The notes beneath the pieces are model-generated. The model had not been told where the DNA came from. It saw only the letters and a program-made list of their open reading frames with translations, and ran no database searches. This document shows positions 717-26,185 of a stretch of 34,255 bases of DNA, piece by piece. The stretch spans positions 1 through 34,255 of the forward strand of contig JAKQNO010000088.1 in the NCBI GenBank assembly GCA_029565735.1, written 5' to 3'. The first letter of the stretch is position 1. Each line of letters begins with the position of its first letter. Source of the stretch: a bacterium. GTDB lineage: Bacteria; Oederibacteriota; PGYV01. The translations under genes and the position numbers were made by a program.

Positions 717-1535
717 TTAATCCACTGATTCAGATGTTAATCCGGATTTGACATTATCGTAGTAAACAATTCCTTCTGTATTTATCGCGTTTGACCTGTA
801 CAGCCCGATTTTGATGTAATTACCCGCGTTATTAAAACAATTTCTTGCGGTGTATCTTGTAAGGCCTGTGCTGCTTTCAATTGCCGCGCCGTCAAGCCAG
901 GCTTCAATAAAGCCTGTATTATCCGTGCTCCAAAACACCCTTGTTTTAATCCTGTGCCAGGCGCCTTTGCTTAAAGGTACTGACGCAATATCCATAACGC
1001 CGTTTGTATCCCAGCTATAAACGCTGACTATCAGGTTTCCGTTTTTATATTTATAAGCAAGCGGGGGCGAATGGGCGGGATAATTGCTCCATGTCTCCCC
1101 AAGCGCGGGGTCGGGCTGGTCGTGAAACTGACCTATTACCTGCCATTCATCACTTTCGGCATAAGAAGAATCAATTTTAATGTACCATGAATAATAAATT
1201 TCCGTGCCGGCCGGCGCTGTGCGCATTAACTGCAGTTCGCTTCTTGCGGTCTGCGATCCGTTATTTGGCGATGTCCATAAATCGCCGCCTGCGCCTATTT
1301 TGAATCTCCCGCAGTGGCTGCCTTCGTATGCGCCGGTGTCATTATAAGAAAAGTTAACACCATCAGCCGTGTACTGCCCTTCCCATGGAGAGTATGTTTG
1401 GGAATTAAAATTAAGGTTTATAAGGGCCAATTCGCCGTAATCATAAGGCTGTGCGGCAGGTTCGTTTATGCTAACAGAAGGTGATTTACATGAAACCATA
1501 AAAAATATAAGAATCAATGCCAGTAAATTTTTCAT
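717..1535 (-). other. nested reading: lipoprotein from internal ATG at 1535 (272 aa)
   Basis: Starting at Met73 of the longer ORF gives a normal lipoprotein: two-residue n-region, hydrophobic core, MVSC lipobox, then a secreted lyase-like domain. This start would put the enzyme in the envelope, where its substrate should be. The sequence upstream (GTAAAGAATTATCTG) has only a weak AAAGAA match to a ribosome site, so translation may be coupled to, or read through from, the SUI1 part. I favour this as the functional form of the lyase, at moderate confidence. Confidence 0.5.
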
Positions 1536-1751
1536 CAGATAATTCTTTACAGCATCGGTCTTGTTTCCCTGAATCTCTATCGCCCCGTTCTTCACGGTCC
1601 CGCCGCAGCCGCAGGATTTTTTTAAGTCACCTGCTATTTTTTCAAGGCGGGCGCTGCCGTAAGTGTGCAGATTGGAAATTACCGTAACTTCCTTACCGCC
1701 GCGTTTTTCAACGCTTATTAACGGTTTTGGAGAACCGGGTTTCGCGTTCAT
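717..1751 (-). CDS. SUI1/YciH domain joined in frame to a polysaccharide-lyase-like lipoprotein
   Basis: A 344-codon ORF made of two unrelated parts. Residues 1-72 are a YciH/eIF1 (SUI1) translation-factor domain: the signature KKSCGCGGTVKNGAIEIQGN (residues 44-63) is clear. It stops at DAVKNYL, about ten residues short of the usual YciH C-terminus. At Met73 a lipoprotein signal begins (MKNLLALILIFFMVSC, lipid Cys88), followed by a jelly-roll polysaccharide lyase-like domain (PF14099 type) with RSEL, WQVIGQFHDQ and a late WHRIKTRVFW strand. Such lyases cleave acidic polysaccharides by beta-elimination; the substrate is unknown. The ATG begins one nucleotide after the SemiSWEET stop and has no clear Shine-Dalgarno. 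The ORF may be a stop-loss fusion, a two-start gene or an assembly artefact. Confidence 0.8.
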   Translation of the reverse strand: MNAKPGSPKPLISVEKRGGKEVTVISNLHTYGSARLEKIAGDLKKSCGCGGTVKNGAIEIQGNKTDAVKNYLMKNLLALILIFFMVSCKSPSVSINEPAAQPYDYGELALINLNFNSQTYSPWEGQYTADGVNFSYNDTGAYEGSHCGRFKIGAGGDLWTSPNNGSQTARSELQLMRTAPAGTEIYYSWYIKIDSSYAESDEWQVIGQFHDQPDPALGETWSNYPAHSPPLAYKYKNGNLIVSVYSWDTNGVMDIASVPLSKGAWHRIKTRVFWSTDNTGFIEAWLDGAAIESSTGLTRYTARNCFNNAGNYIKIGLYRSNAINTEGIVYYDNVKSGLTSESVD

Positions 1752-22753: not shown

Positions 22754-24929
<2,176 letters not shown>

Positions 24930-24981
24930 AGTATTCTCCTTTTATCGTTAAAATAGAATGTCAAAAAAAAAGTTACAGGGG

Positions 24982-25059
24982 ACAAGTTGCAAGTTACAGG
25001 TCAATACAAAGGCAATCACTTAATTACCTGATACTTGTAACCTGTTACTTGTAACTTGT
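24982..25059. repeat. 20-bp imperfect inverted repeat with 38-bp loop
   Basis: ACAAGTTGCAAGTTACAGGT (24982-25001) matches the reverse complement of ACCTGTTACTTGTAACTTGT (25040-25059) at 18 of 20 positions. Each arm also has shorter internal repeats (AAGTTACA, TTGTAAC). It may be a miniature mobile element or hairpin. Confidence 0.7.
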
Positions 25060-25100
25060 CAGCTGTCTTTAAATCTCGTTAATTATGTTTTACTTCAACT

Positions 25101-25126
25101 GCCGCACCCTAAAGGGTGCGCCTACC
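25101..25126 (-). repeat. REP-like hairpin, family B variant (GCACCC/GGGTGC)
   Basis: Minus strand GGTAGGCGCACCCTTTAGGG then TGCGGC: same foot and loop plan as family B, but the stem is changed on both sides (GCACCC pairs with GGGTGC), so pairing is kept. Confidence 0.7.
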
Positions 25127-25147
25127 AGTACAAAACATAGCACTTTA

Positions 25148-25296
25148 GCAGTTTAAGCATTTAAGCTATAGCATAGAAATAAGCAAAAGCAGTTTAAGCA
25201 TTTAAGCTATAGCATAGAAATAAGCAAAAGCAGTTTAAGCATTTAAGCTATAGCGTAGAAATAAGCAAAAGCAGTTTAAGCATTTAAGCTATAGCG
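25148..25296. repeat. 41-bp tandem repeat array, 3.6 copies
   Basis: Units begin at 25148, 25189, 25230 and 25271. The first two are identical, the third differs by one base, the fourth stops after 26 bp. Each unit starts GCAGTTTAAGCATTTAAGCT and holds short direct and inverted pieces (TTAAGC, GCTATAGC). No spacers, so not CRISPR. Confidence 0.92.
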
Positions 25297-25312
25297 AAAC
25301 CGTCTATGTATC

Positions 25313-25397
25313 GCTTATGCTTAACTGCCTATAGCTTAATCCGTTATGTTTTATGCTTTCGCTTATGCTTAATTGCCTATAGCTTAATCCGCTATTT
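25313..25397. repeat. two 48-bp repeats, inverted relatives of the 41-bp unit
   Basis: GCTTATGCTTAACTGCCTAT begins at 25313 and recurs (one change) at 25361. The reverse complement reads TTAAGCTATAG then GCAGTTAAGCATAAGC, which is the 41-bp unit joined across its end with about 18 bp missing. Array and inverted copies could pair into a large cruciform. Confidence 0.75.
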
Positions 25398-25405
25398 CGT
25401 ATTTA

Positions 25406-26185
25406 TTACTTATTAAATCCCATGCTCTGGGAAATTTTCTGTGATGCAACCTTTACCCGCTCGCCAAGGTCTTTTATCCTTGCTTCATCAGTCCTTAAAG
25501 CTGGCGCGGTAATAGCCACGCAGGCAATTACCCTTCCGCGGAAATTGCGCACAGGCGCGGCAACGGAAATTAAATCAGGCGAGTATTCCTGAAAATCAAC
25601 CGAATAACCGGTATCTCTGGCCTGTTTGATTGCTTCTTTTAATTTTGCTTCGTTGTCTATGGTATAAGGCGTCATGGGTTCAAATTTGATAAGTTTTATT
25701 ACTTCATTTATCCTGTCATCGGGAAGGTTTGCAAGCCATATTTTACCGCACGCTGAAGCGTGAAGCGGCATGCGTTCGCCTACATTTGATTTTACGCCAA
25801 CCCTTTCAAGCGTTTCAAGCACGTCAACATACAGGACTTTGTACTGGTCCACAATTGCCAGCCCTATTGTTTCGCCTGTTTCCCTCCACAGCTGCCTTAA
25901 ATACGGCATTGCATGCTGGCGGATGTCAAGCTTTGACAATACGGCGTTTCCAAGTTCAAACAGGCGCATTCCAAGTCGGTATTTTGATGTTTCAGTATCC
26001 TGTTCAACATATTTGCGCAGCATTAATGTGGTTAAAAGCCTGTGAACCGTGCTTTTATGAAGTTTAAGTTCCTTGGATAAAGTTGTGACGCCCACGCCTG
26101 TTTTATGCGCGCTTAATGTTTCTATTATGTCAAGCGTCCTTTCAACCGACTGTACTGTTGTGTCATATGACTGTTTTCTTCTCAA
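25406..26185 (-). CDS. IclR-family transcriptional regulator
   Basis: A 259-residue regulator. Residues 10-72 form the winged helix-turn-helix (TVQSVERTLDIIETLSAHKT, then LSKELKLHKSTVHRLLTTL); residues 85-255 are the IclR effector-binding domain (QYKVLYVDVLE, PLHASACGKIWLAN, SVDFQEYSPDLISVAAPVRN). Effector unknown; family members often control catabolism of sugar acids or aromatics. It starts with TTG at 26185, backed by GGGGAGG 7 nt upstream. It is 31 nt below the PorV/OmpA gene on the same strand and may be read through from it. No obvious target gene can be named. Confidence 0.94.
   Translation of the reverse strand: MRRKQSYDTTVQSVERTLDIIETLSAHKTGVGVTTLSKELKLHKSTVHRLLTTLMLRKYVEQDTETSKYRLGMRLFELGNAVLSKLDIRQHAMPYLRQLWRETGETIGLAIVDQYKVLYVDVLETLERVGVKSNVGERMPLHASACGKIWLANLPDDRINEVIKLIKFEPMTPYTIDNEAKLKEAIKQARDTGYSVDFQEYSPDLISVAAPVRNFRGRVIACVAITAPALRTDEARIKDLGERVKVASQKISQSMGFNK

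What the first reader, a model, noticed from the sequence alone, without database searches (positions are those of the whole stretch)
25148..25397. 41-bp tandem array followed by shortened, inverted copies of itself
Three nearly identical 41-bp units plus a partial one are followed by two 48-bp units whose reverse complement matches the junction of the 41-bp unit with about 18 bp removed. The region can fold as a large cruciform. Low divergence points to recent expansion. Possible roles are a protein-binding array (replication, partition, nucleoid) for an as yet unknown protein, or a decaying mobile element.
Basis: seen in the sequence. Interest (0 to 1): 0.62.

Follow-up and report, generated by a model that had tools for sequence, protein, structure and literature searches.

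The report
Dispersed two-armed repeat after stop codons
The 41-bp array and its inverted neighbours are one copy of a palindromic, non-coding repeat family that sits at fifty or more places in this genome and in both sister species sampled, usually right after a gene's stop codon; it most likely spreads and expands as genomic "filler" in the manner of known small bacterial repeats, and is not a unique binding site.

Summary
The array is real: three and a half 41-bp units at 25147-25295, then two inverted 48-bp units at 25311-25402. The reading needs correction. The inverted units are not shortened copies. They are a second unit type (B) and are longer than the first (A). Both types recur genome-wide as one family: at least 53 sites in this genome and dozens in each of two congeners, but none in 42 other genomes of the phylum. 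Each site reads TAAGC-type units, a short centre, then GCTTA-type units (855 of 866 words obey one switch point). The simplest copies are about 105-bp imperfect palindromes, AAAACATAGC...GCTATGTTTT. Copies lie just downstream of stop codons (median 3.5 and 18.5 nt in two sets) and mostly read sense, B arm first. Orthologous gaps show gain, loss, unit-number turnover and replacement by other repeats; the window's own array is absent from both congeners. Neighbouring REPs belong to RAYT transposases, but R1 itself flanks no RAYT and has no GTAG tag. Hairpin pairing shows no compensatory changes. Best reading: a new genus-specific, BOX/MITE-like small interspersed repeat whose half-units amplify locally; any 3'-UTR effect is incidental or unproven. 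Protein-binding array, integron attC and chance are disfavoured or excluded.

The parts
25132..25397 (-). complete R1 element (array); sense orientation (B arm, centre, A' arm) is on the - strand, co-directional with both flanking genes
   Evidence: k-mer segmentation (the only segment in the window); CM core hit 25250-25356 (-), 102 bits, against 46.5 bits on +
25132..25141 (+). outer end AAAACATAGC (inverted counterpart of GCTATGTTTT) of the A arm
   Evidence: seen in sequence; the same end at other copies
25147..25187 (+). A unit 1 (41 bp)
25188..25228 (+). A unit 2 (41 bp), identical to unit 1
25229..25269 (+). A unit 3 (41 bp), 1 difference
25270..25295 (+). partial A unit next to the centre
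25296..25310 (.). centre/loop (GAAACCGTCTATGTA)
   Evidence: the same kind of centre at L009, L011, L026, L077
25311..25358 (-). B unit 1 (48 bp, inverted relative to A)
25359..25402 (-). B unit 2 (first 44 bp matched, 89% to unit 1), ending next to the IclR stop codon
25097..25126 (-). REP-type palindrome GGTAGGCGCACCCTTTAGGGTGCGGCAGTT, joined to the A' end by a 5-nt linker (TTTT-GTACT-GGTAG)
   Evidence: the same REP class flanks RAYT genes in L070/L071
24981..25067 (.). second, unrelated two-armed repeat (R2: ACAAGTTACAGGT ... ACCTGTAACTTGT)
   Evidence: expanded at the same gap in G002
25406..26185 (-). IclR-family regulator; the array begins 8 nt after its stop
23847..24929 (-). GH5 glycoside hydrolase gene; its start lies 202 nt downstream of the array

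Best explanation
R1 is a genus-specific family of small interspersed, non-coding palindromic repeats. The elementary copy is an imperfect ~105-bp palindrome with near-inverted ends (AAAACATAGC...GCTATGTTTT): a B half-unit, a 10-35 nt centre, and an inverted A half-unit. Copies are tolerated just behind stop codons and are usually sense-oriented. Once in place, each arm grows or shrinks on its own by slippage or unequal exchange (SHOWN: different unit numbers at orthologous sites; INFERRED: the mechanism). Copies exchange sequence ectopically (SHOWN: two G000 loci 7 kb apart share a centre that their congeneric counterparts lack; INFERRED: gene conversion). New sites arise by transposition or templated copying with an unidentified enzyme (INFERRED). 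Any effect as an mRNA 3' stem-loop would be secondary.
For: Dispersal: 83 BLAST matches in the own genome; CM matches 70/59/28 (both strands counted) in three congeners and 0 in 42 other genomes of the phylum. Architecture: 599/606 words and 256/260 words in a hold-out set lie on the correct side of one switch point. Minimal copies. Context: tandem gene pairs, 52/64 copies nearer the stop than the next start, p = 2e-7; hold-out alone 23/28, p = 5e-4. First arm is type B in 35/38 (p = 3e-8). Turnover and presence/absence at orthologous gaps. Unlinked spread of shared centres: L034/L038 and L019/L040.
Against: No transposase or parent element was tied to it: R1 does not flank the RAYT genes, DDE_3 is absent, and no inverted pair of the 10-bp end encloses a transposase-like frame in G002. 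No clean target-site duplication could be defined, because empty sites are rewritten by other repeats rather than simply empty. Long retention at many orthologous sites and sense polarity could also mean function. The ends are degenerate in many copies.
Confidence: 0.68

Rival explanations
1. R1 is a functional RNA 3'-end element: the transcribed B-centre-A' hairpin ends or stabilises mRNAs, replacing ordinary terminators.
For: Stop-codon adjacency and sense polarity. At the L028 convergent gap, both congeners have a canonical intrinsic terminator where G000 has R1. Arrays fold better than shuffles (mean z -2.3 in 19).
Against: 13 predicted pairs with no compensatory change in 23 cores. A locus's own arms pair no better than arms swapped between loci (p about 0.99; this null is only indicative). 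About a dozen sites have a single arm. No U-tract terminator is found in the array. The best-known REPs also lie behind stop codons (PMC3733652), so the position alone proves little.
Confidence: 0.17
2. R1 is a passenger of the RAYT/REP system: REP-R1-REP composites are copied together by the RAYT transposases.
For: REPs within 45 bp of R1 are co-oriented in 28/31 (p = 2e-6). Constant TTTTGNNNTGGTAG junction at 8-9 A' ends. RAYT genes with cognate REPs are present in the genus.
Against: REPs carry the same TTT-x-GNNYT leader where no R1 is present, so the fixed spacing can come from REP target preference for a T run. Most R1 copies have no adjacent REP. Both families being sense-oriented would by itself produce co-orientation. 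R1 has no GTAG tag and does not flank a RAYT.
Confidence: 0.08
3. Binding array for an unknown replication, partition or nucleoid protein.
For: Short conserved words (TTAAGC, TATAGC) repeated at roughly helical-scale spacing; strong family conservation.
Against: At least 53 scattered sites tied to gene 3' ends; rapid gain and loss between congeners; no skew switch in the window; no single special locus.
Confidence: 0.05
4. Integron attC-like recombination sites.
For: They follow stop codons; they are imperfect palindromes; GTTAAGC/GCTTAAC can match the attC core sites GTTRRRY/RYYYAAC (own knowledge).
Against: No integron integrase above the model cut-off, only two XerC/D-like recombinases per genome. 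Core letters are not constant (AATTAAGC as often as AGTTAAGC). Sites are tandem units scattered behind ordinary chromosomal genes.
Confidence: 0.01
5. Assembly artefact.
For: Draft genome of 163 contigs; tandem arrays can be miscounted.
Against: The same architecture occurs in a 20-contig, 100%-complete congener and at orthologous sites. Unit number may still be inexact.
Confidence: 0.01

Closest known systems
BOX elements of Streptococcus pneumoniae (boxA-(boxB)n-boxC), PMC3049150
   Same: Modular small interspersed repeat, intergenic, predicted stem-loop, variable tandem internal modules whose number changes between strains, found in clusters with other repeats, mobiliser not demonstrated.
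   Different: R1 has two inverted arms, each of which can amplify its own unit type (A or B), instead of one internal boxB array between two end modules; no sequence comparison was made; R1 has strong stop-codon proximity and sense polarity.
REP / BIME / REPIN with RAYT, PMC3733652, PMC3116915, PMC2817692
   Same: Dispersed palindromes in extragenic DNA, mostly between co-directional or convergent genes and next to the 3' end of the upstream ORF (PMC3733652); tandem clusters known; true REPs (R3/R3b) with RAYTs coexist here and touch R1.
   Different: R1 has no GTAG tag, is ~105 bp and AT-rich, flanks no RAYT, and its arms are two different unit types, not two copies of one REP.
MITE-type elements (ERIC, RUP, SPRITE)
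   Same: Near-inverted ends (AAAA.../...TTTT), imperfect palindrome, high copy, non-coding.
   Different: No target-site duplication and no parent transposon could be shown.

Membership tests
REP (RAYT-associated) | 20-40 bp palindrome tagged at one end with GTAG | tested here: not met
   R1 consensus has no GTAG; ~105-bp core
REP (RAYT-associated) | copies flank a RAYT (Y1_Tnp) gene | tested here: not met
   Six RAYT loci examined; the nearest R1-like segments are more than 1 kb from the gene
BIME | regularly spaced REPs in alternating orientation | tested here: not met
   R1 arms are runs of same-direction units with a single orientation switch
REPIN | two inverted copies of the same REP with spacer | tested here: not met
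   The two arms are different unit types (A and B); no REP inside
BOX-like modular repeat | composite of end modules with a variable number of tandem internal modules, varying between genomes | tested here: met
   Unit number differs at orthologous sites, e.g. L016: 305 bp in G000, about 156 in G002, 48 in G001
BOX-like modular repeat | sequence homology to streptococcal boxA/B/C | not tested
   No BOX sequence was aligned; Rfam gave no match to the window at gathering thresholds
MITE | terminal inverted repeats | tested here: inconclusive
   AAAACATAGC/GCTATGTTTT in the best copies, degenerate in many
MITE | target-site duplication at an empty site | tested here: inconclusive
   Empty sites are rewritten by other repeats
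MITE | parent transposon sharing the ends | tested here: not met
   No inverted AAAACATAGC pair around a transposase-like frame in G002; DDE_3 absent; exact 10-mer only
Integron attC | integron integrase in the genome | tested here: not met
   TIGR02249 below cut-off in all three congeners
Intrinsic terminator | GC-rich stem followed by a U tract | tested here: not met
   No terminator-like site within the array on the transcribed strand

The most novel reading that the evidence does not exclude
R1 (with R2 and other co-resident families of the same two-armed layout) is a domesticated 3'-end system: expandable hairpin arrays placed after stop codons that have replaced conventional terminators at some genes and tune mRNA 3' ends through copy number.
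Probability: 0.12. Interest if true: 0.65.

Novelty: new member of a known kind. Interest (0 to 1): 0.36.

Why it matters
It is a hitherto unnamed small interspersed repeat family in an uncultured candidate-phylum lineage, with three species that catch it at different stages (absent, minimal palindrome, one-armed, two-armed array). That makes it a usable natural series for how bacterial repeat arrays are born, expand and are overwritten in gene 3' spacers. Its contact with RAYT REPs makes composite mobility testable.

Tried and rejected
Integron attC (integrase absent). IS630/mariner-type MITE parent (DDE_3 absent; no TIR pair). RAYT as direct mobiliser (R1 not at RAYT genes). Rfam RNA family (none at gathering threshold; only chance eukaryotic matches at E 0.06-1). 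Phage origin (0 matches to two R1 words in viral contigs). Covariation (0 compensatory pairs). Arm-swap pairing: own arms not favoured, in fact weaker; the excess weakness probably reflects mixed arm types, so it is read only as 'no local co-evolution'. The fixed R1-REP spacing first looked like proof of co-mobility; the REP leader control removed that.

Full report
CHECK OF THE OBSERVATION. TRF reports a 41-bp unit, 3.6 copies, 99% matches at 25147-25295. Two 48-bp-spaced inverted units follow at 25311-25402. The longest exact direct repeat is 67 nt, against at most 12 in 60 first-order Markov shuffles. The inverted units are longer than the 41-bp unit and are a different unit type. The fold is long but imperfect: RNA -74 against -62 kcal/mol for shuffles, z -2.9.

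IT IS A GENOME-WIDE FAMILY. Searching the same genome (2.47 Mb, 163 contigs) with 25100-25450 gave 83 matches. I took 2-kb stretches around 39 places, segmented them with a k-mer model and found R1 at 37 of them plus the window. A covariance model of the core (23 sequences; model) then found further copies in G000 and in both other species of the genus, and none in 42 other genomes of the phylum (stricter filters apply there, so weak copies could be missed). With the hold-out loci, G000 holds at least 53 sites. Window-protein relatives with names come from candidate division FCPU426 and unclassified bacterial MAGs, so the organism is an uncultured bacterium near that lineage (inference).

ANATOMY. 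Every site reads TAAGC-sense units, a centre, then GCTTA-sense units: 599 of 606 words in the first 51 arrays and 256 of 260 in 40 independently chosen stretches. The two arms are usually different: B (AAACATAGCGGATTAAGCTATAGGCAATTAAGCATAAGCGAAAG) and A (AATAAGCATAAGCGGTTTAAGCATTTAAGCTATAGCGAA). Minimal copies are about 105 bp: B, a centre of about 10-35 nt, A', ideally bounded by AAAACATAGC and GCTATGTTTT. The window copy is an expanded form with 3.6 A units and 2 B units. Some sites carry one arm only (for example L016 with a run of B units and no A).

CONTEXT. In tandem gene pairs the array lies a median 3.5 nt from the upstream stop codon and 60 nt from the next start (36 loci). In the hold-out set the figures are 18.5 and 124.5 nt (28 loci). 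Pooled, 52 of 64 are nearer the stop (p = 2e-7; a few loci are orthologues, so this is slightly optimistic). In transcript direction the first arm is type B in 35 of 38 scorable cases. This position is also typical of REPs in other bacteria (PMC3733652), where it is read either as tolerance of 3' spacers or as RNA function.

EVOLUTION. Orthologous gaps were located from flanking genes and read in G001 and G002. Several sites are shared by species although flanks differ by 15-20% (L009/L079, L010/L085, L013/L086, L019/L083, L023/L087), yet unit numbers and inner sequence differ. Others are absent from one or both congeners, including the window's site. Empty gaps are not clean: they are filled with other repeats. 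At L028 both congeners carry a canonical intrinsic terminator where G000 has R1. L034 and L038, 7 kb apart in G000, share a centre that their G001/G002 counterparts lack, which is best explained by ectopic conversion. No target duplication and no parent transposon were found.

REP NEIGHBOURS. Two REP classes, GGTAGGCGCACCCTTTAGGGTGCGGCAGTT and GGTAGACGCGGGTCTTTAGCCCGCGGCAGTT, flank RAYT genes in L070/L071. REPs near R1 are co-oriented with it in 28 of 31 cases and meet its A' end at constant spacing. The REPs' own leader (TTT-x-G-N-N-Y-T before GGTAG; G 90%, T 98%) is present without R1, so the spacing is explained at least as well by REP target preference.

FUNCTION. Structure conservation is not supported by compensatory change, nor by within-locus arm matching. 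The array contains no terminator-like site on the transcribed strand. I therefore favour an interspersed repeat with local half-unit amplification, tolerated behind stop codons, and give a 3'-end RNA role about 0.17. The binding-array idea is unlikely because of copy number, context and turnover.

COMPARISON. It works most like the BOX elements of pneumococcus (PMC3049150): modular, palindromic, with tandem modules of variable number. It is not a REP, BIME or REPIN by the features tested, and MITE membership is inconclusive. It is a new family of a known kind, with an unusual two-armed expansion.

Noticed in passing
window 25097-25126 (-), 212 (-), 8984 (-), 28364 (-), 32176 (+); L070, L071: Two GTAG-tagged REP classes with RAYT genes flanked by them (REPtrons) in this candidate-phylum genus; REPs share a leader TTT-x-GNNYT-GGTAG.
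   Followed up: partly
window 24981-25067; L073, L074: A second two-armed repeat (ACAAGTTACAGGT ... ACCTGTAACTTGT) occupies the same gap and abuts the IclR stop codon in both congeners, expanded in G002.
   Followed up: partly
L095-L134, L012, L026, L032: Intergenic spacers of this genus look like mosaics of about ten short repeat families (e.g. GGGACGGATGCACGG, GGATGCTTGGATGG, GTTGGAGCGAGC...AAATCCC, GTAGAGACGCAACATGTTGCGTCTC, TATCCCATATCCCATAAA) that replace one another at orthologous sites, some starting right at the stop codon; a ~65-bp family is inserted inside R1 arrays in L026 and L032.
   Followed up: partly
L028 with L110, L133: A canonical intrinsic terminator between convergent genes in two species is replaced by an R1 array in the third.
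   Followed up: no
window 717-1751 (-): One reading frame matches both SUI1 (translation initiation factor, residues 12-75) and a polysaccharide lyase domain (116-335): an unusual fusion or a gene-boundary error.
   Followed up: no
L019, L040: The called gene ends overlap the R1 array by about 15 nt, so the repeat may encode the last residues and the stop codon.
   Followed up: no
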